A stretch of DNA of 64,000 nucleotides. Origin: Halobacterium wangiae. GTDB lineage: Archaea > Halobacteriota > Halobacteria > Halobacteriales > Halobacteriaceae. The notes under the pieces were generated by a model that was not told the origin of the DNA, ran no database searches, and saw nothing but the letters and a program-made list of their open reading frames with translations. A program made the translations under genes and the position numbers. Location: NCBI RefSeq assembly GCF_021249345.1, contig NZ_CP089588.1:1736001-1800000 (forward strand), given 5' to 3'. This document shows positions 33,624-56,741 of the stretch, one piece after another (the stretch's first letter is position 1; each line of letters opens with the position of its first letter).

Positions 33624-36600
33624 TCACTCCTCGTGGAACGCTTCCGCTTGACGCTGTTTCTTGTTTTGTTTGTGCAGCCATTCTGCGGGATAGACCGCGG
33701 TGAGGCCTGGCTCGTTGATACGGAATTGGTGTGGTGGCGTCGTCGGAGCATACGTTTTTTCGACCCGGGGTTCGCCCTCGAGAGGATCATTGAGGGCTTG
33801 GAGGACATCATGGCCTGCGGATTGACTCATGACCACCCAGATAGCCTCCTCGGGGTTGCAGGCGGCCATCTTATCGTAATCACTGGGCACGGCGCGCGCT
33901 ACGTCGTGATTGATGCGTTCGACTTCGCCGGTGACTACAATGTTTCCGTCGGCATCGAGGCCGACGACATCGAGGCGGCGTTGGTCGTATTCCGTGCTGG
34001 CTTCACGCGGGGTTTCCTCGCTAGTACTCATGAAGGCCTCGACGGGGAACGCAGGCTCGTCCCTTTCGTCGAGTTCATAATACCGAAGCACCTCCACAAC
34101 TGTGGAGTCGGGGTTGTTCTTGAATTCGAGGACGATGTGTTCCCAGAGGATTTCAACGCCGAGGACGTGTTCAGTGGACTCATCGAGGTCGCCCTTTGTG
34201 TGGCCGAAATCGATGCCCTGGCGGTACTGCTCACCGATGGCGTGGCGACCACTCGCGGGCACAGAATACAATCGATGCGGGTGGTCCCTATCATGTCTTA
34301 GTACGTCCGCGTCGAGAAGGCCCTGAATCTCCTCACTACTGATGCCCGTGTATTCTTGGAGGCGTAACATGGAGTCCTCTTTCAGATCGTACTCCGGGGG
34401 TTCATACCGGAGTTGCTGAGCATTATATACGGCTTGAAGGAATGCGAGCTGGCGCGCACTCCACTTACTCTCCTCGAATTCTTTCGGGGTGAGTTTGAGG
34501 TGGAGGCTCGTAATCGGAATATCATCCTCATCAACGTCATCGAGCCTAGAGCAACACTCGATCGCGCGCTCCATACCCTCCATGCTCGGGTTGTATCGCG
34601 AGTCGCACTCCCGGCACGTGAGGGCGTGAGTTTCCCCATGGTACTCCACAGTACGTGGAAGGCGTTTTGTGAGCGCGAGCGGACTCAACACACCACCCAC
34701 ACCCATTCCTAATTCCTCCTCACCCTCTTCTTCTTCCTTGGCGTCCGTGTGGGCGTTCTCTGGGATAGTACTGGGTTCGCGAACCACCACGCCCGATTCT
34801 TTCTCCGTGCGTTCCTGAGTCGATCTGAGCGCGCTCACAAAGCCCTCGCCCTCCCCCTCAGTCAGTGGCTGGGGGCCATCCCGAATACCAGGAGGTTGCG
34901 GGAGTGATTGAACGAGGAATGGCCGGGGCTCGACTGAATTGAATCCCGAAGGAAGCCGGACCATCCACTCCCCACGCCTGAGCGCACGCAACCGATTCCC
35001 AACCTCCCTCCTCGAAGTATCCTCGGTACTGAGGCGCTCAGATAGGCGACGATCCAATGCGACATTCCCCGTCACAATCGTCGAGACATTATTCAAGACC
35101 TCACTATACGCCCGAGGGCTCGCATCCTCGAGTTGCTGGGGGAACTGCATCGCAAGCGTCACCGAACACCCAAACCCACGCGACTGCGCAAGAAACTCCG
35201 AAAGCAACCCAGAAACTGCAACACTCGCAGCCTCCTCAACATACACATTCACCAACCCCCCAGAACTACCGCTAGTCTTACTACTACCGCGACTACCACT
35301 CATCGCAGTACTAGGAATAGAACTAGCACCCCCCGGATCAGAAGAATCCCCGATTCCAAGGCTTGCACCCTCATCTTCAGGACTCCTCCCCAGAGAACTC
35401 CCCTCCTCGTGTGCCCGATTGGGTTCCATTTCTATTCCGGAGTCAACTCTGGGTTGGGTTGCTTGTTCGTGTTGGCTGCGGCGTTTGAGTGCACTCCAGA
35501 GATTCGACAGTACAACCAGCGTAAGCACACGCTGGAACTCTGAGCGTAGTCCACCCGTATCGAAGATGATGACTTCGTCCTCACTGATGTGCTCGAACAA
35601 ATCAAAATACGCATCTACGCTCCCAGAACCCTCCTCATCAGTACTTGAGGATAATCCCCCACCACTCAACTCGCCTTCCTCATCATCACCAACTCCTCCT
35701 GTATCTGAGTCCTCCTGTTCGGGGTCTCCACCGGTACTGGATTCTACACCCACTCCGAGTGATTGTGCATCCTGTGTTCTCGTCTCGTGCCCCGCGATGG
35801 TGGTCTCATCCGGGACGTGATTGAAGATGCGTGCGAGGCGTCGATCAACGGGGATCTTCTCTACGCGAGTAGCCACCCCGCCCATGAGTTCGTTAAACGA
35901 GCGTGCTTGATTCGCGGTGACGCCAGCCAGCATCCCCTCGAGGTCCGGGTCCGAGACTGCGGGCGGGGTCTGGTCTTCATGCATCTTCTGAATAGTAGTA
36001 AGAAATTCGCGGTGCGTGAATGCGTCCTGGCCATGCACGGGATCAAACATCGCCTTCAACACATACCGAATAATATCTGGGGAGCGTACGGCGCGCTCGA
36101 AGCGCTCCGGGCCCATGATCTGGGTTAGAATCTCGATGTAGTGCTCGACCTTGTCCTCGACCGCGCTTGTCCGCGCAATACCCATCCTGAGTTCTGGCCG
36201 GATATCGAAGAACGAGAACGCGGGAAGCACGCGAGCGCAATCAAAGTACGTCACGCCCTCGAGATCCCCGTGCTTCGCGTAATGAGCCCTGAGGTACTCG
36301 GTGGCCATCCCATCACCCTTCGGATCAATCAAAATATCCGCGCCTCCTGTGGATTCCTGGTTCTCGAGGATTCCATTGATCAGGCTCGTGGATTTCCCTG
36401 AGCCAGTCCGCCCAAACCACGCCACATGCAACGACTGAAGGCTCGGAGGAAGCACAATAGATTCCGACTCGGTGCTCCCGTCCTCGGTGAGCGCACGACC
36501 CAGAGGGAGACCACTACCTCGATAGGTTTCGAGCTCACTCGGTGGTGGCCGCTTGAGGCGAGTTCGCTCACCCGGTGTTGGGGCGACTCCGCGCACGCCT

Positions 36601-37937
36601 TGATTCGTGAGCGCACTCCCATCGAGAACGAAGAAACTCGGGGCTTCCCTGGCATCCACCACAAACCCCCGACTACCCCTCCGAGTGAAACGCGACCGAA
36701 GCCCCCCGAAGGACGCCCCCTCGAACTCCCTAGTACTAATCCTATCCCGGAGTCTTCTCGCGTTCTTCCCTCTCTGTAGGCGGCCCTGAATCTCGTATTT
36801 CGGACCCGCGAGTCCTCCAAACAACCCCTCTAATCCACTCCCACTGAATGCATGCTTGGTCGCTTTATCGGTCTTCGCGGCGGCCGTATCCTCGTATTCG
36901 CCCTGGTCATCGCTGTCTTGGTATTCTTCACCTTGGGGGTCGGTGGTGAGGAGGCGTGCGTTCATCAGGAATGACCGATGCGTCTCTCTCGCCCGGATGC
37001 TCTCGATGCGCTCACGATCACTGTGAGGGATTGGCGTGCCCTCGGGCGCACTCCCGAAAATCGTGCTCGTGAGTTGTGCACCTATGCCGTCCTGGTAGGA
37101 TTCGATATCCCCAATTCGGGCGTCGGCCTCACTCGACCAATCCGGCTTCGGACGCAGAAGTACCTGATATACTCCCGGGCGCCCATGGCTCGTGAGGAAC
37201 TCGAGTACTCCAGAGAGTGGGGTTCGAGAGTGTTCGCTAGCTCGGAATGACTCGAAGTCCTGGAGGCGAGTCTGCCAATCCTTCGAGCGCCCAACCACGC
37301 CCTCAAAGACAACCCCAACCAACTCTCCTGTACCCTGCCCGCCAACAGTACTCAGGCTCTCCTCAGTACCCCGCCCCTCGAGAACCTCTTCAGTGTTCTC
37401 GCCTGGAGTTTCCTGGTTGAGTCGAGAAACCAGGATCTCCCGGGGGTAGGGTTCTGGTTTCGTAATCCTCTCGAGCTCGTAGGAGTCCGGGAACAACCCC
37501 TGAAGCACTCGCTCAAGCCCACCAAGGAGCTCCGGGGGATTCACACCGAAGAGGTACTCAGTGGATCCGTCCCCCGGTGAAACAATGAGGCACTCGAACA
37601 CCGGTCGCCTCATAGACTCTCGGCCTAGTTCTTCTAGAAGTTTCCTGAGGGGGTTTCGACCCAGAGTGGTGTTCGCCTTGCTTGTGAGCTGGTGGAGGCG
37701 ACGAACATGCGAAAGCACAGTTTCGACCTCCACGTCATCACGAGATGGACGCACCCGCAGAAACACCCGCCCATCTTCATCCCCAGCGGATTCTCCACTA
37801 TGTGTCTCAGAGTTCTCTTGCTCTACGCCCGGAGCACTCCTATTGGTATAGGAAGTGTCTCCTGCGTTCTTTGTTCCCTGTGTTGATTCTACATATCCGC
37901 CTGGATTCCTCCTATTGGGCTTGCTCGGATTCGACAT
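33624..37937 (-). CDS. Conjugation-type coupling ATPase (TraG/VirD4/HerA-like) with nuclease-like C-terminus
   Basis: A 1437-residue protein. After a disordered N-terminus, the P-loop AWFGRTGSGKST is near residue 510, ILIDPKGDGMATEY near 555, IFDTGGLRSEFQR near 790 and the VYVEEAASVAVSGLLSEFLAQ helix near 900. A CxxC...CC cluster (LTCRECDSRYNPSM) is near 1110, then winged-helix-like sequence, and RLDVVGLDADGNIVVTGEVERIN near 1335-1350, resembling a PD-(D/E)XK core. It would pump or dock DNA for conjugative transfer at the membrane. No other secretion genes are in the window. An in-frame GTG six codons upstream (37955) is an alternative start. Confidence 0.82.
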   Translation of the reverse strand: MSNPSKPNRRNPGGYVESTQGTKNAGDTSYTNRSAPGVEQENSETHSGESAGDEDGRVFLRVRPSRDDVEVETVLSHVRRLHQLTSKANTTLGRNPLRKLLEELGRESMRRPVFECLIVSPGDGSTEYLFGVNPPELLGGLERVLQGLFPDSYELERITKPEPYPREILVSRLNQETPGENTEEVLEGRGTEESLSTVGGQGTGELVGVVFEGVVGRSKDWQTRLQDFESFRASEHSRTPLSGVLEFLTSHGRPGVYQVLLRPKPDWSSEADARIGDIESYQDGIGAQLTSTIFGSAPEGTPIPHSDRERIESIRARETHRSFLMNARLLTTDPQGEEYQDSDDQGEYEDTAAAKTDKATKHAFSGSGLEGLFGGLAGPKYEIQGRLQRGKNARRLRDRISTREFEGASFGGLRSRFTRRGSRGFVVDAREAPSFFVLDGSALTNQGVRGVAPTPGERTRLKRPPPSELETYRGSGLPLGRALTEDGSTESESIVLPPSLQSLHVAWFGRTGSGKSTSLINGILENQESTGGADILIDPKGDGMATEYLRAHYAKHGDLEGVTYFDCARVLPAFSFFDIRPELRMGIARTSAVEDKVEHYIEILTQIMGPERFERAVRSPDIIRYVLKAMFDPVHGQDAFTHREFLTTIQKMHEDQTPPAVSDPDLEGMLAGVTANQARSFNELMGGVATRVEKIPVDRRLARIFNHVPDETTIAGHETRTQDAQSLGVGVESSTGGDPEQEDSDTGGVGDDEEGELSGGGLSSSTDEEGSGSVDAYFDLFEHISEDEVIIFDTGGLRSEFQRVLTLVVLSNLWSALKRRSQHEQATQPRVDSGIEMEPNRAHEEGSSLGRSPEDEGASLGIGDSSDPGGASSIPSTAMSGSRGSSKTSGSSGGLVNVYVEEAASVAVSGLLSEFLAQSRGFGCSVTLAMQFPQQLEDASPRAYSEVLNNVSTIVTGNVALDRRLSERLSTEDTSRREVGNRLRALRRGEWMVRLPSGFNSVEPRPFLVQSLPQPPGIRDGPQPLTEGEGEGFVSALRSTQERTEKESGVVVREPSTIPENAHTDAKEEEEGEEELGMGVGGVLSPLALTKRLPRTVEYHGETHALTCRECDSRYNPSMEGMERAIECCSRLDDVDEDDIPITSLHLKLTPKEFEESKWSARQLAFLQAVYNAQQLRYEPPEYDLKEDSMLRLQEYTGISSEEIQGLLDADVLRHDRDHPHRLYSVPASGRHAIGEQYRQGIDFGHTKGDLDESTEHVLGVEILWEHIVLEFKNNPDSTVVEVLRYYELDERDEPAFPVEAFMSTSEETPREASTEYDQRRLDVVGLDADGNIVVTGEVERINHDVARAVPSDYDKMAACNPEEAIWVVMSQSAGHDVLQALNDPLEGEPRVEKTYAPTTPPHQFRINEPGLTAVYPAEWLHKQNKKQRQAEAFHEE

Positions 37938-37949
37938 AGACGCAACCCA

Positions 37950-37976
37950 CCCCACTCACCCAATGGGGGTGTGGGG
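37950..37976. promoter_or_regulatory. Imperfect inverted repeat before the coupling ATPase
   Basis: CCCCAC (37950-37955) and ACCC (58-61) pair with GGGT (67-70) and GTGGGG (71-76) around a 5-base loop, with a 2-base bulge. It lies just upstream of the ATPase start at 37937, where an operator would sit. No binding protein is known. Confidence 0.35.
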
Positions 37977-46245: not shown

Positions 46246-47280
46246 TCAGTGCCCGAGTATCCGGGAATCCCTGGCGTCGGTGACCGCTCGATACGTCCTT
46301 CCCCGTGTTTCGCCCGCTGAGACGACTTGATTATAGGACTCTAACTTACTCAGGTAGTCACCAACACGGCGTGGCGTCCGCGCCTCCTCCTCGCCGACCC
46401 GTTGTTCGTATTCCTCGTAGATCCTACTCTTCGCCGACTCACCAAGCTCCTCGAGGACCTCAAGGACGATGCGTTCATGCCGCTGTAATCGACTCCGTGC
46501 CTTCTGGCGGATACGATTTATCGCAGTCTCCCGGCCAGCCTCGATTACGCCTGACGTCAATTCCTCTTGGTCGCTCGCGCGAGCTGCATCCACGGCCGCC
46601 CGTAGGGTTTGAATCGCCTCCCGTGCATTCCCATTGGCGAGCGCTGCGACCTCCTCGAGATCCCTGGTGGTGTACGCCCAGGATTCGAGGCCACGGACAG
46701 CGCGTGGCTGGAGAATCCCTACGAGGGCATCCTGGGAATATGGTCCGTATGGGATATTCTCCGTCCACTCGATACTGACTGATTCGCGTCGAAGTCGGTC
46801 CCGGAAGCGGTCCTCGTCGTTCACGATGGTGACGACGCCAACCCCGTCCATGGCGTTAAGGTCGGCAATGAGGTGTGGGTCGTCGAGTTGGTCGGCTTCG
46901 TCGAGTACGATCACGCACCCGGAGTCTGGAAGTGCCGATCGGACTCGTGAGCGGAGGGCGGTCTGTGGCGTCTTCGGTTGCACGACGCCCGGGCGGCCGA
47001 GGCCCTGGAGGATGGCAGTGTACGCCTGATAGGGCCGATGGTTCGTCCAGCAATCCACTAGAGCTGTTCTGACTGCGGTCTCCTCATCGAGTTCCTGGAG
47101 CACCCAGCGCGAGGTCGCCGTCTTCCCCGCACCTGGTGGCCCTGAGAGGAGGACTGGATTGGGGGCTTCACCGTTCGTGATTGGGGAGAATGCGGAGGCG
47201 AGCGCGGTGGTTTCACCGTCTCGCGCATGAAGGTCCTCGGGCACCCAGCCCTCGTCGAAGACGTGTGGATGGGTGATCAT
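46246..47280 (-). CDS. Orc1/Cdc6 family replication initiator
   Basis: A 344-residue AAA+ protein. Walker A is LLSGPPGAGKTATSR near residue 45, Walker B is CVIVLDEADQL near 122, sensor-like VVTIVNDEDRF follows, and the C-terminal winged helix has RIYEEYEQRVGEEEARTPRRVGDYLSKL and VVSAGETRGRTYRAV. It would bind origin repeats and load the helicase, or regulate the island. The ATG at 47280 follows a TTATCC box (47304-47309). The upstream frame to 47337 uses a TTG and would read through that promoter. Confidence 0.9.
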   Translation of the reverse strand: MITHPHVFDEGWVPEDLHARDGETTALASAFSPITNGEAPNPVLLSGPPGAGKTATSRWVLQELDEETAVRTALVDCWTNHRPYQAYTAILQGLGRPGVVQPKTPQTALRSRVRSALPDSGCVIVLDEADQLDDPHLIADLNAMDGVGVVTIVNDEDRFRDRLRRESVSIEWTENIPYGPYSQDALVGILQPRAVRGLESWAYTTRDLEEVAALANGNAREAIQTLRAAVDAARASDQEELTSGVIEAGRETAINRIRQKARSRLQRHERIVLEVLEELGESAKSRIYEEYEQRVGEEEARTPRRVGDYLSKLESYNQVVSAGETRGRTYRAVTDARDSRILGH

Positions 47281-47303
47281 ATCCAGGGAGTGCGTCGACA
47301 GGC

Positions 47304-47331
47304 CGGATAAGGATATAGGGCATATTTCCGA
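47304..47331 (-). promoter_or_regulatory. orc1/cdc6 promoter with shared upstream element
   Basis: On the minus strand GAAATATGCC is followed after 7 bases by CTTATCCGG, the TATA-like TTATCC lying 24-29 bases before the ATG at 47280. The same arrangement precedes the RecA-like gene at 52356. Confidence 0.55.
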
Positions 47332-47373
47332 ATACAATACGGTAACTACTGGGATGGCAGCGTCCCGAATTCG

Positions 47374-48081
47374 CTAATCGGACGCAGAAAACTCGTCCAG
47401 GCCACTCTGCTCCCCAATGTCGATTTGCTCGTACAAGTCTGGCGTCTCCGTATCCGGATTATTCACCTGCTTCGACACGGGGTACGCCTCAAGGACGTCC
47501 TCGGGATAGGTGTCAAGGACACCCATCGCGTCCGTGGTGTCACCCGTCAACCACGCGGTTTCCTCGGTGGGTTCGAGCATCACTGGCATTCGGTCATGGA
47601 TCGGTTCCAGAACCGCATTCGGCTCCGTCGTCAGAATCGTCACCGTCTCTCTAAGACTGTTCCCGGACGCGGGTTCCCACTGGCTCCAGAGTCCAGCGAA
47701 CGCGAACGGTTCTCGGTCCTCGCGGACGATCCGGTAGGGTTGTTTCCTCCCACGAGCGCCCTGCCACTCGTAGAATCCGTCGGCGATGACGAGACATCGC
47801 TTGTTCTTGAGTGCACTCCGGAACATTCCGGAGTCCTGGACGCCCTCCGCTCGTGCATTGATCGGGTTCGGGACGTCATCAGGGTCGTCGGCCCACTCAG
47901 GAACGAATCCCCACTCCAAGACGTCGGCGGTGTCGGGGTTCTCGTTGGTGATGGTGACTAGGCCGTCACTGGGGTCGATGTTGTACTTCGGGACGTACGC
48001 CTCGACTGCGTCCGTGGTGGCAACGTCAAAGCGTTGCCGGAGGACGCTGATGTCGACGGCAAGGCTGGTCCGACCACACAT
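47374..48081 (-). CDS. SOS response-associated peptidase (SRAP/YedK/HMCES family)
   Basis: A 235-residue SRAP protein. Catalytic Cys2 is at MCGRTSL, and the other active-site segments are NPINARAEGV, CLVIADGFYEWQ (Glu) and IHDRMPVML (His). The family forms a DNA-protein crosslink with abasic sites in single-stranded DNA through Cys2. The start must be the ATG at 48081 for Cys2 to become N-terminal; the longer frame would bury it. It sits among replication and repair-like genes of the island. Confidence 0.9.
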   Translation of the reverse strand: MCGRTSLAVDISVLRQRFDVATTDAVEAYVPKYNIDPSDGLVTITNENPDTADVLEWGFVPEWADDPDDVPNPINARAEGVQDSGMFRSALKNKRCLVIADGFYEWQGARGRKQPYRIVREDREPFAFAGLWSQWEPASGNSLRETVTILTTEPNAVLEPIHDRMPVMLEPTEETAWLTGDTTDAMGVLDTYPEDVLEAYPVSKQVNNPDTETPDLYEQIDIGEQSGLDEFSASD

Positions 48082-48261
48082 ATACTCCTCTACACCGCCA
48101 AGAGAGGTTAACCCCCCGGGCCAAGTGCTCGGCATAGAGATTGTTTGTGATTGAGGGGGTCCTAACTCGGTATACTGGGTTAGCCTGTGGGTGGTCATGC
48201 CCGGTATGCTTGAGACGCCTTCCGCATCAGCTAGAGCCTCCCGAAGAAGTATGTATTAGAA

Positions 48262-49233
48262 ATGTTACCTGAAGATATGGATCTTGAAGCGGACAGTCCG
48301 ATCGAGGCAGGCGAGGGGGAGGTCAACCTCTCGGTTATCCAGTTGGTAGAAACATCCCCCGACTTCAGGCAATGGTTCGTTTCACAGGCAGTGCCTCATC
48401 TGGAGATTGAAGAATACATTGGCGGCATCATACAGGAGCACTACGCTGGTTTAGGCGAGTCAGACATCGAATTCGGCTTCCGCACTACCTCAGGCGCACG
48501 CCACCTCGTGCTGGTCGAGAACAAGATCGACGCCTCCTTCCAACCAAATCAGATCGAGCGCTACTACAACCGCGGTCAGTTTCGCGTCGATCGAGAGAAC
48601 TGGGATTCGTTTACAATTTGTTTGTTGGCCCCGGAACGCTACGTCTCGCAGGAAACGAGGGCCGAATTTGATTCGGTCATTCATTATGAGGCCGTCCTCA
48701 ACTACCTAGACGATCTACCTCACGATAGTGTAGAGTTCTTCCAAGCACTGATAAAGTCGACAGAGCAGAAATCAAGTACAACTGACGCCTCCAGTGTCCT
48801 GCGGTCAATTGGAGATACGTTTCAACGCAGAACTGACCTAACGAACCTCCATCAATCGGTTAGTTACAAAAAACGGATTGCGTTCCGCTCGAGCCACCCA
48901 GAACATCCAGCCGCTGTTCAATACGATGTGGACATCAGAGATACCGGCGACGACGGCCGGACACAGGTCAGATTACAGCTGTTGAACGAAGAGGACTTGA
49001 CCGGGGAAAAACGCGAGAAGCTCGAGTCGGTCGTCTCCCAGCACATCGATTCACTCCCAGATTACAAACCCAAGTTGGGGGACGAAAAGAAGAACATTGC
49101 AGTCAAGCAGATTCACCATGACGAAGTCGTACAGGATTCACCGTACGATTCCTATATCGTTGCTATCGCCGACGAATTACGGAATTTGAGTGAGACTTTC
49201 CACCCGGTGTTCGTCAGAAGCCCCGTTTGCTAA
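48262..49233 (+). CDS. PD-(D/E)XK nuclease superfamily protein
   Basis: A 323-residue protein. The core is SDIEFGFRTTSG followed by HLVLVENKIDASF, giving Asp68 and Glu86-x-Lys88, the PD-(D/E)XK triad. Then QIERYYNRGQ fits the Gln-containing helix after it. The C-terminal half (about 195-320) is unlike anything I recognise. Such proteins are usually restriction or repair nucleases. It stands alone, diverging from the SRAP gene. Confidence 0.72.
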   Translation: MLPEDMDLEADSPIEAGEGEVNLSVIQLVETSPDFRQWFVSQAVPHLEIEEYIGGIIQEHYAGLGESDIEFGFRTTSGARHLVLVENKIDASFQPNQIERYYNRGQFRVDRENWDSFTICLLAPERYVSQETRAEFDSVIHYEAVLNYLDDLPHDSVEFFQALIKSTEQKSSTTDASSVLRSIGDTFQRRTDLTNLHQSVSYKKRIAFRSSHPEHPAAVQYDVDIRDTGDDGRTQVRLQLLNEEDLTGEKREKLESVVSQHIDSLPDYKPKLGDEKKNIAVKQIHHDEVVQDSPYDSYIVAIADELRNLSETFHPVFVRSPVC

Positions 49234-49325: not shown

Positions 49326-51434
49326 TTACGAGCCGTACTCGCCGAGTGTAGCGTCACGGGTGTCGTCAAGGAACGCTCGGATATCTTCCTCGCGGTACTC
49401 CATTGGCGCCAACACTGACTCTGCAGCCCGAATGAGTTCGTCGACGTAGAACCCACCATCGTACGTCTTAGGGTCCTCTGCGAGGAGTTGCACGCGGTCG
49501 CGACCCCGCTTAGAATTGTCGACGACGACGTACTCGACGTTCTCCCCAGCGTGCTTCTCAAGGCCGACATCTGTGGCGCGCTCGAGGGCAGCGACGTTCC
49601 GCGTTGATTGAGAGTACTCCGCGAGGGGCTTCGACACCCGGTTCGTAATCGCCAACGCAGACGCCTCGACCTCCTGAGCCTGTAGTCGAGAAATCTCGGC
49701 TTGAACCTCTTGACATACAGCCTCCGGGTCCCGCGTCCGTGAGTACGTCTGAATGAACGACTTCTGGACGTCCTTGATGTACGGGGGCGTGGAGTGCTGG
49801 CGGGCCTCGATGCCCCTGTGCTTGTACGCCTCTGAGTTACTGGGATTGCTGTCGGCTTCGAAGCCGAAATACCGCGTGAGGGCGCCCGCGTCATCGTTCC
49901 GCCTGGGGCAGAACGCAATCCACTCATACTCAGCCTCATGCTCGAGACGAATCCCCGTCTCGTCGGTGATCTCCCTGGCGACCTCCTTGATCGGGGTTTG
50001 CTCGCGGTCAGGCATCGCTTGGACCCAGACGGAGTCGACGATGCCGTGGACGACGCGCCAGCCGTGTCGTTCGAAGTACTGCTTCGCGTCAAGGAGGATC
50101 TCACGGGCGTACGCGTTGATAGCTTCGTGGCACTCGATGCGCCCGAACTTGGCGTTCGCGAACCCCTGGTAGCCGAAACAGGAGACGAGAATCCACTTCA
50201 ACGCCGCAGAAGCCCCCTCCAGAGCCTCGACCTCCCCAGGGTCGTCGGTCTCACGGATTTGGCGCTTGATGTCATCGCGGTCATCGATAATCGGGCCCAG
50301 GACCTCCGGGAGATACCCATCCTCAGGGCAGACTGCGTAGTTCAGGCCAGGGACGTCTTTGCGGTCGGGGTGACAGTCGCAGCGAACGGTCTCCGGACTG
50401 AGGTTGTGCTCGCGAATGATATTCGGATACAGAGAGCTAAAATCGAGCTCGTGTACGTCCTCGTGGACGCCGACGTCGGGCGCAAACGTGTAGCCACCAC
50501 GGTCAGCAGTGTCGAGTGTTCGCGCGGTCTTGAAGCGTTCGTGCCTCCAGGAGCGCCACGGCACCAGTACACCCCGGTTGTCGGCGTACCGGATCTGGAT
50601 GGCCGTCAAGATGTTCCCGATGGATGCCCACGCAGTCTCCTGGAGTGGCTTCCAACTCCGACGAACCAGGTCGAGCATCCCCTCGACGTTCGCTTCCTTC
50701 AGCCAGAACGTATTGCTCTCGTCGACAATGACGCGTCCCGGGAGATTATGCCTCGGAGGAGAGTGCCCGACCTGGCCGTAGGACTCGTACGTCGACGCCC
50801 CAGCGAGTTGCTGGTAACCCGGCTCCCGGCCTAACTGGTAGTCGTTCTCTTGGGCGGCATCGAAGAGCAGTGGAATCACGCGACTACTCGATACTTGCAG
50901 AATATCCGGGTCTACAGCTTGAACGCGAGCTCCAACCTCGCCAGCAACCTCCCGGGGAGTGCCAGTGATTGTGTCCTCACCTATGGTCGCTTCCTCGAGG
51001 CCGGTTTCGTAACTCGTCGGCGGAACCGTGAGCCGTACCACCGACGGTGTCCGAGTCGGTTCTGGGTTGGTTCCAGTTTCGAGGCAGTAGCGGAACTCCC
51101 GGGAGAGATCTACATTGTAGAGGCGGATCGCGCCCGGGCGTCCGAGTTGACTCGCAGTACGCGCCAGCTCGTCGACGGCGTCCAGCCTCACCGCATCTAC
51201 TCGAAGGACCTCAGTGGGGTTTTGACGCCACCCTGGACGCCGCGTAACCACCTCCAGATGGTGGACGCGGGGATGGCCGTCGAAGACGCTCACGACCTCA
51301 CTCCGGAGGTCCTCGCTGTTGGTCTCCACGTACAGCGTCGGATGGTAGGTATGGGTCTCACGTTCAATCCCATTCTTGGTGAGCGTCCATGTGACGGCTG
51401 TCCCAGGCTCAGGGTGGTCGACCTTGTAGACCAT
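49326..51434 (-). CDS. Atypical family-B DNA polymerase (PolB2-like)
   Basis: A 702-residue PolB relative. Motif A is HELDFSSLYPNIIREHN (Asp near residue 332). Motif B is KWILVSCFGYQGF rather than KxxxNSxYG. Motif C is VVHGIVDSVWV near 460-470, where the usual YGDTDS has lost its first Asp but kept the second. No exonuclease DIE or second exo motif is visible in the first 250 residues. It therefore resembles the archaeal PolB2 group known for disrupted catalytic motifs. Start ATG at 51434; a longer open frame runs through the next two genes. Last gene of a three-gene operon. Confidence 0.85.
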   Translation of the reverse strand: MVYKVDHPEPGTAVTWTLTKNGIERETHTYHPTLYVETNSEDLRSEVVSVFDGHPRVHHLEVVTRRPGWRQNPTEVLRVDAVRLDAVDELARTASQLGRPGAIRLYNVDLSREFRYCLETGTNPEPTRTPSVVRLTVPPTSYETGLEEATIGEDTITGTPREVAGEVGARVQAVDPDILQVSSSRVIPLLFDAAQENDYQLGREPGYQQLAGASTYESYGQVGHSPPRHNLPGRVIVDESNTFWLKEANVEGMLDLVRRSWKPLQETAWASIGNILTAIQIRYADNRGVLVPWRSWRHERFKTARTLDTADRGGYTFAPDVGVHEDVHELDFSSLYPNIIREHNLSPETVRCDCHPDRKDVPGLNYAVCPEDGYLPEVLGPIIDDRDDIKRQIRETDDPGEVEALEGASAALKWILVSCFGYQGFANAKFGRIECHEAINAYAREILLDAKQYFERHGWRVVHGIVDSVWVQAMPDREQTPIKEVAREITDETGIRLEHEAEYEWIAFCPRRNDDAGALTRYFGFEADSNPSNSEAYKHRGIEARQHSTPPYIKDVQKSFIQTYSRTRDPEAVCQEVQAEISRLQAQEVEASALAITNRVSKPLAEYSQSTRNVAALERATDVGLEKHAGENVEYVVVDNSKRGRDRVQLLAEDPKTYDGGFYVDELIRAAESVLAPMEYREEDIRAFLDDTRDATLGEYGS

Positions 51435-51435
51435 C

Positions 51436-51681
51436 CTATTCGTTGAGGCGGGCTTCGAGCTCGGTGATACGGCGCTCCTGAGCGACCAGGATCGAGAGGT
51501 AGATTGAGTCGAGATCGCGGGGGAGATTCGCGTATCCCGCGGCATCGGCGTACCCGCGGGCGTGCTCCCAGAGGCGGTCGTAGTGCGCCTGATCGCGGTA
51601 TCGAAGCGCTCGCCGAAAATCACCCAAGTCGCTGTGTGTGGACTCGAGGCGGTCACGGTAGGTGCGGTTCGTTCGCCCCAT
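51436..51681 (-). CDS. Small protein between RecA-like and PolB genes
   Basis: An 81-residue charged helical protein (MGRTNRTYRDRLESTHSDLGDFRRALRY...ILVAQERRITELEARLNE), the end looking like a coiled coil. Its stop is one base before the polymerase ATG and its start is one base after the RecA-like stop, so it is co-translated with both. It may bridge the two proteins. No family recognised. Confidence 0.75.
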   Translation of the reverse strand: MGRTNRTYRDRLESTHSDLGDFRRALRYRDQAHYDRLWEHARGYADAAGYANLPRDLDSIYLSILVAQERRITELEARLNE

Positions 51682-52356
51682 CTATACGCCACCCCAGGCT
51701 TCGCGGGCGGCCCGCCCCTCATAGAGACTCTTGCGCTCCTGGAGGACTTCCTGCCAGAACGCCCACGTGGTCTGCACCCAGCCATCACTGAGGTCGTACA
51801 TCAACGTCTCCATGCCCTCGCCCTCGAAGCGCGGCCCGAACTTCGTCCGCCGATACTCCAATGAATGCTCAGCGATAGCCGCAATGGGTTCACTAAACTC
51901 GTCGGCACCATGGCGAGTAAGGAGGACGGGGATATCGTGGTCGCGAGCGATTCGCGCGAGTTCAGCTAAACCCCGGGTCAGCATCGCCTGGGGGTCGTAC
52001 CCGCGGACGTCGTCGTCGCGGTAGTGGTAATCGACGACGGGCACAATGAGCATGGACACCTCGTCTTGGAGGCTGGTGCGCAGGCGCCTGATGAGGCTGG
52101 TATGCTGATAGGGAGTGAACCCGCGAGCGACCTGCACGCGGTCGAGGACACGATCACTCGGCGCAAGCTCGCGGAGGCGACTCGTGACGGCGTGATGCCC
52201 GGAGTCCACCCAGTACGCGGGCCCGGAGTTGAGGAGAACGTGATCAATCACCAGGGTATGGATGGCGTCGATTCCATGGGAGTCCGGCGTTTCGAGGAGA
52301 GTCAACCCCGACTCAAGACTCGGAAGATCGGGCATATCGTGGTCCGGTGTTGGCAT
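51682..52356 (-). CDS. RecA/RadA-like protein lacking a P-loop
   Basis: A 224-residue protein with the RecA-core pattern. The usual GPPGSGKT position reads LTLLETPDSHGIDAIHTLV (residues 19-36), without the Gly-Lys-Ser/Thr. The later strands SMLIVPVVDYHYRD (Walker B-like) and IPVLLTRHGADEF are kept. It is probably an inactive or ATP-independent paralogue that works with the polymerase downstream. The ATG at 52356 lies 25-30 bases after a TTATCT box. First gene of the operon with the small protein and PolB. Confidence 0.7.
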   Translation of the reverse strand: MPTPDHDMPDLPSLESGLTLLETPDSHGIDAIHTLVIDHVLLNSGPAYWVDSGHHAVTSRLRELAPSDRVLDRVQVARGFTPYQHTSLIRRLRTSLQDEVSMLIVPVVDYHYRDDDVRGYDPQAMLTRGLAELARIARDHDIPVLLTRHGADEFSEPIAAIAEHSLEYRRTKFGPRFEGEGMETLMYDLSDGWVQTTWAFWQEVLQERKSLYEGRAAREAWGGV

Positions 52357-52560: not shown

Positions 52561-54012
52561 ATGATTCGGAAACGCTCCTTCGGCGTCCTTGCTGTGGTTC
52601 TTCTCGTCATGCTCGCTGGGTGCACAGGCGTACTCAGTGACCAAACAACACCACAGAACACACCCGGCATAACGTCTGAACCCACTACGACAGAACTGAC
52701 GGGGACATCAACATCACCAACTGGACCCGATGGGGAGCTTTCGATTCACTTTATCAACGTCGGGCAAGGATCGAGCACCCTCATCATTGGGCCGAGTAAT
52801 GAGACGATGCTCATCGACTCCGGGGACTGGTCCGATGACGGCGAAGACGTCCTCAAGTACCTCCAAGAACGCAATATCGAGCGCATTGATTATCTCGTCA
52901 GTACGCATGCTGATGCTGATCACATCGGGGGCCATGAAGCCGTTATCAACTACTTCGAAACTCAGGGTGAGGGAGTTGGTGCGGTGTATGATTCGGGGAT
53001 TGCATCGAGTTCCCAGACCTACCAGGGGTACCTCGACACCATTGAGGAGCACGATGTGACGCTCTATGAGACGCGGGCCGGCGACACCATCCCCTTCGAG
53101 GGTGTCGATACTCGCGTGCTCGCACCACCAGAGGGGTATCTCGCGGATGGCGACCGAAACGAGAACAGTATCGTTCTTAGACTCGGCTACGGGCAATCGA
53201 GCTTTCTACTTCCTGGTGATGGTGAGACCGCGTGCGAAGAATATCTTGTTGAGGAGTATGGTTCGGGGCTGAACGTGACCGCGATGAGTGCCGGCCATCA
53301 CGGCAGTCAGTCGAGTTCCAGTAGTGAATTCCTCGATGCAACAACACCCCGGGTCGCCGTTATCTCCAGTGCCTACGACTCCCAGTACGGCCACCCACAC
53401 GAATCCGTTCTCGAACGATTCCATGAACAATCAATCCGGGCCTATTGGACGGCTACACACGGGAATATTCGAATACGGAGTACAGGCTCCACAATAACGG
53501 TTGCAACGCAGCGCCAAGCGCCAACCAGTCCCCTCGAAATCCGTGACAGCGACCCAGTCGAACCCGGCCTCGAGGATGAGCTGGTCGTCCGAACTACCAT
53601 CCAAGTCAGTGGTTCAGTGACAGAGGAGACGACCACAACATCGGGAACGAAGACGACGGAGGAGACACTAGATCAGGATGGGGAGCTGTCTATTGCTGGG
53701 TTTCACGCGGACGCAGAGGGGGATGATGCTGAGAATCTGAATGATGAGTACGTCGTTTTCGAGAACACTGGGAGCGAATCACTCGAGTTGGGGGGTTGGA
53801 CGGTCAGTGATTCCGCGGACCACACCTACACATTCCCATCCGGATTCACACTCGATCCTGGTGCCCAGGTAACTCTGCATACAGGTAGTGGAACAGACTC
53901 GACGAGCGACCTGTACTGGGGTGCTGGAAGTGCTATCTGGAACAACGCCGGCGACACCATTATCGTAGAGAGTGATGAGGGTAGTCTCGTGCTCGAGGAG
54001 GATTACGAGTGA
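52561..54012 (+). CDS. Secreted ComEC-type MBL-fold lipoprotein with lamin-tail domain
   Basis: A 483-residue exported protein. The N-terminus MIRKRSFGVLAVVLLVMLAGC is a lipoprotein signal, with a Thr/Pro-rich linker to about 55. Residues 60-310 are the ComEC/Rec2-type MBL domain: FINVGQGSSTLI, STHADADHIGGHE, LLPGDGE and SAGHHGSQSS. Residues 365-483 match a lamin-tail domain (DEYVVFENTGSESLELGGWTVSD; AIWNNAGDTIIV). It may be a surface nuclease or phosphodiesterase held near nucleic acid. It is co-translated with DUF3006. Confidence 0.88.
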   Translation: MIRKRSFGVLAVVLLVMLAGCTGVLSDQTTPQNTPGITSEPTTTELTGTSTSPTGPDGELSIHFINVGQGSSTLIIGPSNETMLIDSGDWSDDGEDVLKYLQERNIERIDYLVSTHADADHIGGHEAVINYFETQGEGVGAVYDSGIASSSQTYQGYLDTIEEHDVTLYETRAGDTIPFEGVDTRVLAPPEGYLADGDRNENSIVLRLGYGQSSFLLPGDGETACEEYLVEEYGSGLNVTAMSAGHHGSQSSSSSEFLDATTPRVAVISSAYDSQYGHPHESVLERFHEQSIRAYWTATHGNIRIRSTGSTITVATQRQAPTSPLEIRDSDPVEPGLEDELVVRTTIQVSGSVTEETTTTSGTKTTEETLDQDGELSIAGFHADAEGDDAENLNDEYVVFENTGSESLELGGWTVSDSADHTYTFPSGFTLDPGAQVTLHTGSGTDSTSDLYWGAGSAIWNNAGDTIIVESDEGSLVLEEDYE

Positions 54013-54287
54013 TTCCTGATGGGACGTACACGGGTGTCGTGGACCGATTCGAGGACAACCACGCAGTAGTCCTGCTCGACGGCGATGTAGAGACGGTCGG
54101 CGAAATCATCCTCGAGAAAGACCAGTTGCCTGAGGACGCCCAGCACGTCGACGCCGTCCTCCATATCGAACTCAAGAACGAGGACCTACTCAATATCGAG
54201 TACGGAGAAGAGGAGACAAGGGTCCGTCGAGAGCACGCTCAGAAGCGATTTGATGACCTGGCTAAACGCCCGCCGTCCAGAGATTGA
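54009..54287 (+). CDS. DUF3006 family protein
   Basis: A 92-residue protein (IPDGTYTGVVDRFEDNHAVVLLDGD) of the DUF3006 family, whose members are usually encoded next to ComEC-type MBL proteins, as here. The GTG start overlaps the preceding stop (GTGA). Cytoplasmic, acidic, with a charged C-terminus. Function unknown. Confidence 0.82.
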   Translation: MIPDGTYTGVVDRFEDNHAVVLLDGDVETVGEIILEKDQLPEDAQHVDAVLHIELKNEDLLNIEYGEEETRVRREHAQKRFDDLAKRPPSRD

Positions 54288-55184: not shown

Positions 55185-56741
55185 CTAGTCGAGAGCGTCG
55201 AGAGAAGGACCTGTGAGTCCGCCATCCCACCAGAGCACGGCGATTCCGTACTCGGTCTCGAGGTGTGAGAGGTAATCCATCATTGGTTGAGGGGGTTCAC
55301 TACTCAGGAACAGCCCAGGGGTGGATTCTCCAGCGAATTCTTCTCGCTGGATTACGTCCGAGTACCTGTACTCTACTACCTGTCCTACGGCCTTGCGAAT
55401 ACGCCCCCACAGGTCGCCCGTGCTGGTTGATTTCACCTCGAATACGAACACTGGACCACCCGTTTTGTAGGCGATGAGGTCACTGTGTCTCGTCTTCTTA
55501 CAGGTGAATCCACGCTCCTCAAAGATCGACCGAAGCCGGCCGACTGCCTGCTCATGCTCCGTAGTCGCTGCTCGCTGGCTCTCCTTGTTCGACTCATAGA
55601 AGATAGTCTCCTCTTCGGTCACTTCCCCAGTTGTCTCGGGGACAGGATTGTCAGCAATATCCTGTAAGGGCGACGTAGCGAGTTCGCTCGTCTCCTCCTC
55701 GGATTCGATGGGCGTGATGAGCCCATCCTCGTAGGCCTCCCACAGTTCGTACCCCGCTTCGGTTAGCCCCGTTCTGGTTGGCCCTCCTCCCTGACTGTCA
55801 CGCTCCGCGTATCCGAGCGCCTGCAGCCATTCTCGGTGCCGGATTGCGACTCCCGCCCCCTCCATGTCGTGGCCGTAGGGGCCGCTATTGAGGATTAATC
55901 GAAGTTCCTCGTCGGAGAGCGGCCCCATCGACGCGAGGGCATCCAGCAAGAGATCAAAGCCAGCCACCGCCCCGTCGAGAAGCGCGAACAGGGTTTCAGA
56001 GTCCGGGTCGGCAAGGTAGCGTTTGCCGGCAGGGCCCAAACGATACTCACCATTGGTCGAGTCAACCAGGTTGAGGCTCCGGAGAAAGTTCAGATATTGG
56101 CTTCTGGTCGTCTCGCTGTCCGCATCGAATTCTTCTCGGAGCCACTCGTTTGCGGCGTCCTCTGTCGGGGACTCCGCTTCTACGTACTGAATGAACGTGT
56201 GAAGGTTCTCGATTCGGTTGCTGACGCCCCCAAAGAACCGATCGCAGGTCAGGCGTTTGTCTGTGGACTGTGTCATCGACTCCCCTCCGTTCCCTCTGTG
56301 AGCCTCCCAGCTTCCGATACCCAACTCACGCATGTGGAACCGGTAGACCATCCGGGTTCCATCGGTCACGTATTCGTGGTCCTCAACGTTCGCGAGGCCG
56401 CGGTACTCGTACTCATCAACGCCATCCTCACTGGTAAACAGATAGATGGGGATTGGCTCATCAGCGGCATCAATGAGCGCCTTGTTCGCGGGCGTCTCAA
56501 TCTGATCTCCCTTCTCCTCAACGTCCTCCCCGGTGTAGGTGAACTCGCTCCCGCTCCCGAACTCGTCCGCGTAGATGGCGCCCTCGTTCGCAAGGAGAAT
56601 GACGTATTTCCCTTCGTCAGGGTGGCGGTAGGTGATTCCCTTGAACTGATATCCGAAATCGGTCCCAAATACCTCCTCCACCTCGTTCTGTGAAAGCGTC
56701 TCGCCGATACTGAGGTTTCGAGTGAGAGGGAAATCAGCCAT
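55185..56741 (-). CDS. Candidate modification-dependent restriction enzyme (SRA-like, wHTH, PD-(D/E)XK)
   Basis: A 518-residue protein. The first 130 residues resemble the ScoMcrA-type SRA domain: GYQFKGITYR, SEFTYTGED, GDQIETPANKALIDAA, IPIYLF and YEYRGLANV. The middle (about 185-345) looks like winged helices (GPLSDEELRLILNSGPYGHD; TRTGLTEAGYELWEAYEDG). The C-terminus (395-518) has ERGFTCKKTRHSDLIAY and VFVFEVKSTSTGD, giving Asp near 421 and Glu-x-Lys near 435 of a PD-(D/E)XK nuclease. It could cut DNA with modified bases. It is convergent with the GIY-YIG operon and stands alone. Confidence 0.72.
   Translation of the reverse strand: MADFPLTRNLSIGETLSQNEVEEVFGTDFGYQFKGITYRHPDEGKYVILLANEGAIYADEFGSGSEFTYTGEDVEEKGDQIETPANKALIDAADEPIPIYLFTSEDGVDEYEYRGLANVEDHEYVTDGTRMVYRFHMRELGIGSWEAHRGNGGESMTQSTDKRLTCDRFFGGVSNRIENLHTFIQYVEAESPTEDAANEWLREEFDADSETTRSQYLNFLRSLNLVDSTNGEYRLGPAGKRYLADPDSETLFALLDGAVAGFDLLLDALASMGPLSDEELRLILNSGPYGHDMEGAGVAIRHREWLQALGYAERDSQGGGPTRTGLTEAGYELWEAYEDGLITPIESEEETSELATSPLQDIADNPVPETTGEVTEEETIFYESNKESQRAATTEHEQAVGRLRSIFEERGFTCKKTRHSDLIAYKTGGPVFVFEVKSTSTGDLWGRIRKAVGQVVEYRYSDVIQREEFAGESTPGLFLSSEPPQPMMDYLSHLETEYGIAVLWWDGGLTGPSLDALD

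What the first reader, a model, noticed from the sequence alone, without database searches (positions are those of the whole stretch)
49326..52356. Atypical PolB with a degenerate motif C, co-translated with a RecA-like protein lacking the P-loop
Motif C reads HGIVDS: the first Asp of DTD is replaced by Ile, while the second, which corresponds to a metal-binding Asp in family-B polymerases, is kept, as is motif A. The exonuclease motifs are not visible. The RecA-like protein has LETPDSHGID in place of Walker A. Two catalytically altered proteins in one operon hint at a structural or translesion role. A PolB2 group with disrupted motifs is known in archaea; the pairing with a P-loop-less RecA relative is the notable part.
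Basis: partly seen in the sequence, partly recalled or inferred. Interest (0 to 1): 0.6.

Follow-up and report, generated by a model that had tools for sequence, protein, structure and literature searches.

The report
Known archaeal PolB2 mutasome operon

Summary
The window, from a Halobacterium-like haloarchaeon, encodes three butted genes on the minus strand: iRadA, PPB2 and PolB2. PolB2 has motif C HGIVDS, an intact motif A and no recognisable exonuclease domain. The RadA-like protein lacks Walker A and also the Walker B Asp.

It is PPB2 and begins with that family's hallmark MGRT. SRAP and Orc1/Cdc6 genes follow, both reported as enriched neighbours of polB2.

This is the PolB2 mutasome operon described by Makarova 2014 and Timinskas 2025. 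HGIVDS is the normal PolB2 sequence here: 92 of 95 haloarchaeal PolB2 ORFs matched H[GA][IV][VI]DS. A tree puts the window protein inside PolB2, away from canonical PolB. None of 88 iRadA relatives has a P-loop. The trio recurs across haloarchaea and in methanogens, and dN/dS in related operons is 0.13-0.36.

Sulfolobus PolB2 enzymes lacking the same Asp are robust polymerases and mismatch/lesion extenders. The most likely function is therefore damage-tolerance synthesis by an active PolB2, with iRadA and PPB2 as non-catalytic scaffold parts. The 'structural only' idea is disfavoured.

Minor additions: a second diverged operon, a PCNA-box-like PolB2 tail, a low-GC island. Interest is low.

The parts
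51682..52356 (-). iRadA: RadA/Rad51-like protein without Walker A or Walker B Asp; likely start ATG 52356, alternative ATG 52398
   Evidence: Pfam Rad51 E=4e-5; PDB sequence matches to RadA/RadB; AF2 model pLDDT 82 with Foldseek top hits RadA/Rad51 E~1e-12, TM ~0.55-0.6; alignment with own RadA and RadB
51436..51681 (-). PPB2 (arCOG07300-type), 81 aa, starts MGRTNRTYRDRL
   Evidence: ATG directly after the iRadA stop; homologues in 18 of 20 relative loci starting with MGRT-like sequence; MGRT is the hallmark N-terminal motif in PMC11791011
49326..51434 (-). PolB2-group family B DNA polymerase, 702 aa, motif C HGIVDS, D(K/R)GG motif before motif A, degraded exonuclease part
   Evidence: Pfam DNA_pol_B 106 bits, NCBIfam NF004418 982 bits over cut-off 692; tree; motif counts; Foldseek to family B polymerases E~1e-38
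47374..48198 (-). SRAP (SOS-response-associated peptidase) gene, reported recurrent neighbour of polB2; same strand, downstream
   Evidence: PF02586 E=9e-68; SRAP also near polB2 in 13 of 80 relative loci
46246..47337 (-). Orc1/Cdc6-type AAA+ ATPase gene, reported recurrent neighbour of polB2
   Evidence: AAA_22 1e-13, Cdc6_lid 4e-6; Orc homologue near polB2 in 39 of 80 relative loci
49326..49361 (-). C-terminal PCNA-box-like tail of PolB2 (TRDATLGEYGS), weak; inferred
   Evidence: L-[SGATE]-x-[FYW] type tail in the last 18 residues of 79 of 95 haloarchaeal PolB2s, against a mean of 9.3 and maximum of 21 in 500 shuffles

Best explanation
This is a PolB2 mutasome operon. PolB2 is most likely a catalytically active, exonuclease-free family B polymerase that uses the motif A Asp (D331) and the kept motif C Asp (D467) as metal ligands, and that extends mismatched or lesion-terminated primers during damage tolerance. 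iRadA no longer binds ATP and serves as a RadA-fold docking subunit for PolB2. PPB2 forms a helical (trimeric) bridge whose MGRT arm sits between PolB2, iRadA and DNA. Shown here: gene anatomy, motif states, operon conservation, phylogenetic placement, and purifying selection in relatives. Inferred from published work on Sulfolobus and from published models: polymerase activity, extender role, complex formation and damage induction.
For: Trio in order iRadA-PPB2-PolB2 with 0 and 1 nt junctions. The same trio occurs in 17 of 20 regions taken (the other three are the canonical-PolB locus, L041 and L053), in 67 of 80 haloarchaeal genome loci, and in methanogens: all three genes were detected in L174-L176, while more diverged loci match PPB2 and/or iRadA only weakly. 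Motif C is HGIVDS in 87 of 95 haloarchaeal PolB2s, so it is a fixed family trait and not local decay. Tree: PolB2 forms one group at 100/99, the haloarchaeal clade is 100/100, canonical PolBs are separate. dN/dS is 0.13-0.36 in two pairs of related operons. Literature: S. islandicus and S. solfataricus PolB2 lacking the first Asp are robust, exonuclease-free extenders (PMC8764526); iRadA/PPB2/PolB2 heteropentamer model and Orc1/Cdc6 and SRAP neighbours (PMC11791011).
Against: No biochemistry for a haloarchaeal PolB2 was found. Motif B of the haloarchaeal PolB2s is also altered (N to V). polB2 can be deleted in Halobacterium NRC-1 without loss of viability (PMC1906834), which fits a damage-tolerance role but proves none. 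I could not model the complex.
Confidence: 0.88

Rival explanations
1. The haloarchaeal PolB2 has lost polymerase activity and acts only as a structural or regulatory factor at stalled forks or origins, with iRadA and Orc.
For: First motif C Asp and the motif B Asn are gone; Orc1/Cdc6 neighbours; an inactivated status was proposed in 2014.
Against: Motif A Asp and the metal-binding motif C Asp are invariant in 14 aligned PolB2s. The same motif C substitution is compatible with full activity in Sulfolobus.
Confidence: 0.1
2. Decaying or recently inactivated gene pair of no function.
For: Two catalytic-site losses in one locus; patchy distribution (21 of 40 related genomes match iRadA).
Against: dN/dS well below 1 in related operons, intact frames, invariant motifs, presence in hundreds of genome records.
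Confidence: 0.01
3. A canonical replicative PolB (PolB1/PolB3 type) with a single-site change, or a plasmid replicase.
For: Often on haloarchaeal megaplasmids (89 plasmid records with a place covering at least 80% of the query) and near Orc genes.
Against: Tree separates it from canonical PolBs. The genome has its own YGDTDS PolB (L035). polB2 is dispensable in NRC-1.
Confidence: 0.01

Closest known systems
Archaeal PolB2 mutasome (PolB2 + PPB2/arCOG07300 + iRadA), PMC4104785 and PMC11791011
   Same: Three genes, order iRadA-PPB2-PolB2, MGRT start of PPB2, missing first motif C Asp, D(K/R) motif, lost ATPase site, SRAP and Orc1/Cdc6 neighbours
   Different: Nothing that changes the kind. A PCNA-box-like ending is common in haloarchaeal PolB2s here, whereas the paper reports clamp motifs more often in iRadA
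Sulfolobus islandicus Dpo2 (PolB2), PMC8764526
   Same: PolB2 group, Ile at the first motif C Asp, no exonuclease motifs
   Different: Crenarchaeal and biochemically tested; the haloarchaeal protein is untested
Halobacterium NRC-1 polB2 on pNRC200, PMC1906834
   Same: About 52% identical to the window protein; next to an orc gene
   Different: An IS200/IS605 gene and others lie upstream of polB2 there; the window operon is uninterrupted
E. coli Pol V mutasome (UmuC, UmuD', RecA)
   Same: Translesion polymerase working with a RecA-family protein and a small partner (analogy drawn in PMC11791011)
   Different: Y-family polymerase, active RecA, unrelated small subunit; analogy of organisation only

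Membership tests
PolB2 group of family B DNA polymerases | Phylogenetic placement with PolB2, outside canonical PolB | tested here: met
   PolB2 rows one group at 100/99; canonical PolBs and E. coli Pol II outside. Crenarchaeal PolB1/PolB2/PolB3 were not available, so the comparison is with Halobacteriota canonical PolBs.
PolB2 group of family B DNA polymerases | First Asp of motif C replaced, second kept, conserved His before it | tested here: met
   HGIVDS; literature description
PolB2 group of family B DNA polymerases | Exonuclease motifs lost or degraded | tested here: met
   No exonuclease Pfam domain in the window protein or 13 relatives
PolB2 group of family B DNA polymerases | Conserved D(K/R) motif upstream of motif A | tested here: met
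   DRGG in all 80 loci and in the window
iRadA | RadA/Rad51 ATPase-domain fold without the N-terminal domain | tested here: met
iRadA | ATPase site residues missing | tested here: met
   Walker A and Walker B Asp absent against own RadA and RadB; no P-loop in 88 relatives
PPB2 (arCOG07300) | Small (~80-90 aa) protein with conserved N-terminal MGRT | tested here: met
   MGRTNRTYRDRL, 81 aa
PPB2 (arCOG07300) | Homotrimer binding PolB2 and iRadA | not testable with these tools
   No multimer prediction available
PolB2 mutasome | Three genes in one conserved operon | tested here: met
PolB2 mutasome | DNA-damage-inducible, error-prone lesion bypass | not testable with these tools
   Shown only in Sulfolobales

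The most novel reading that the evidence does not exclude
This genome carries two diverged, complete PolB2 mutasomes (46% identical PolB2s; one in a low-GC island, one in a GC-rich stretch) that may divide labour, and haloarchaeal PolB2s may bind PCNA through their own C-terminal LSxF-like tails rather than through iRadA.
Probability: 0.3. Interest if true: 0.3.

Novelty: already known. Interest (0 to 1): 0.12.

Why it matters
It closes the lead: the motif C change is a family trait compatible with catalysis, and the pairing with a P-loop-less RadA relative is the published PolB2 mutasome. What remains open is whether haloarchaeal PolB2 is active, and why some haloarchaea keep two diverged copies; both are testable in genetically tractable Haloferax or Halobacterium.

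Tried and rejected
Viral contig search for PolB2 relatives: none confirmed. A first motif C regex was wrong and was redone (one search corrected). The first iRadA alignment request failed on a frame error and was repeated. I considered a relocated P-loop; rejected. The PolB2 model (pLDDT 75) was too weak to judge active-site geometry and was used only for fold.

Full report
Observation. The window belongs to a single-contig genome of 3.11 Mb. A same-genus relative (G002) has a contig of 157,757 bases, the length of Halobacterium hubeiense plasmid pSTJ002, so the genus is very probably Halobacterium. On the minus strand three genes abut: a RadA-like gene (51682-52356, or from ATG 52398), an 81-aa gene (51436-51681) and a family B polymerase gene (49326-51434, 702 aa). 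The stop of the first touches the start of the second, and one base separates the second from the third. The longer 820-aa polymerase ORF is mechanical over-extension.

Motifs. The polymerase has motif A DFSSLYPNII, motif C HGIVDS, and an altered motif B (KWILVSCFGY). Pfam finds DNA_pol_B and no exonuclease domain in it or in 13 relatives. In the PDB alignment motif C faces the Thermococcales polymerase motif with the second Asp kept. The RadA-like protein matches Rad51 weakly. Aligned with the genome's own RadA and RadB it lacks the whole Walker A, and the Walker B Asp is Pro. Its predicted structure (pLDDT 82) matches RadA and Rad51 best. No P-loop was found in 88 relatives.

Family traits, not local decay. 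Among 95 haloarchaeal PolB2 ORFs motif C is HGIVDS in 87, HAIVDS in 2, HGIIDS in 2, HGVVDS in 1 and QAIVDS in 1; two more were regex mis-hits elsewhere in the sequence. Seven more diverged methanogen PolB2s have HGIVDC. DRGG, the published D(K/R) motif, is in all 80 genome loci. dN/dS is 0.15-0.22 for PolB2, 0.13-0.24 for iRadA and 0.22-0.36 for PPB2 in two pairs of related operons.

Neighbourhood. The trio in this order is present in 17 of the 20 regions taken around iRadA or PolB hits; one of the other three is the canonical-PolB locus, taken on purpose. PPB2 and iRadA were found beside PolB2 in 67 of 80 haloarchaeal genome loci, with Orc in 37 of those and SRAP in 13; some of the remaining 13 loci are cut by contig ends, and others may belong to a subgroup with genes inserted between PPB2 and PolB2. 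In two Halobacterium plasmids the genes upstream of PolB2 include an IS200/IS605 transposase and an Rrf2-type regulator. The trio also occurs in methanogens. 454 candidate stretches in the genome collection encode relatives, and 89 plasmid records hold a place covering at least 80% of the query. In the window the genes on the same strand downstream include SRAP and Orc1/Cdc6, the neighbours reported as enriched around polB2.

Phylogeny. In a 48-row tree (LG+C20+F+G4) the window PolB2 lies in the haloarchaeal PolB2 clade (100/100), joined with methanogen PolB2s (100/99) and apart from canonical YGDTDS/YADTDS PolBs and E. coli Pol II. Two long rows make the deep canonical part unsure, but not the PolB2 group.

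Literature. Makarova et al. 2014 (PMC4104785) reported PolB2 with disrupted catalytic motifs in an operon with an inactivated RadA and arCOG07300, with arORC2 neighbours, and extra two-gene copies in haloarchaea. Feng et al. 2022 (PMC8764526) showed that Sulfolobus PolB2 without the first Asp is robustly active, lacks exonuclease and extends mismatches and lesion termini. Timinskas et al. 2025 (PMC11791011) named PPB2 and iRadA, described the MGRT arm, modelled the heteropentamer, and noted Orc1/Cdc6 and SRAP neighbours. The 2007 Halobacterium NRC-1 knockout study (PMC1906834) found polB2 dispensable. I found no paper beyond Timinskas 2025 using the names iRadA or PPB2 together with PolB2.

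Mechanism. The best reading is an active extender polymerase with non-catalytic RadA-fold and helical partners. For this protein the activity, complex and damage induction are inferred, not shown.

Small additions. The genome has a second complete, diverged trio (L034, PolB2 46% identical, HAIVDS) near 3.02 Mb. The PolB2 C-terminus ends in an L-x-x-aromatic type tail in 79 of 95 proteins, against a mean of 9.3 by shuffling; it resembles the end of the genome's canonical PolB (QTQTGLGSFT) and may be a weak clamp-binding motif. GC content falls from about 0.67 to about 0.50-0.60 from near 30 kb of the window onward, so the window operon lies in a probable island or integrated replicon.

Noticed in passing
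G000:C1:3020671-3023647 (locus L034, 4672-7712): Second complete iRadA-PPB2-PolB2 operon in the same genome, PolB2 46% identical to the window copy, motif C HAIVDS, in GC-rich surroundings (0.69).
   Followed up: partly
window 30000-64000: GC drops from about 0.67 to 0.50-0.60 near 30 kb and stays low to the window end; a 1443-aa ORF (33624-37955, minus) weakly resembles a type IV coupling protein. Probable integrated plasmid or island.
   Followed up: partly
L041 6158-7092 (G014:C2): iRadA-PPB2 pair without PolB2, PPB2 starting MGRA; such two-gene copies were noted by Makarova 2014.
   Followed up: partly
L185 and L186 (Halobacterium plasmids pNRC200 and pSTJ002); gaps over 600 bases in 14 of 80 loci: A PolB2 subgroup with 0.7-4.5 kb inserted between PPB2 and PolB2; in the two plasmids the genes upstream of PolB2 include an IS200/IS605 transposase and an Rrf2 regulator.
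   Followed up: partly
window 52561-54287 (+): Divergent gene pair next to the operon: metallo-beta-lactamase plus lamin-tail protein and a small ORF; a lamin-tail and DUF3006 pair also lies near polB2 on pNRC200.
   Followed up: no
window 48262-49233 (+): PD-(D/E)XK_4 nuclease-like ORF convergent with polB2, between polB2 and SRAP.
   Followed up: no
window 55185-56741 (-): Large ORF with a weak SAD/SRA-like N-terminal match, perhaps a modification-dependent restriction enzyme.
   Followed up: no
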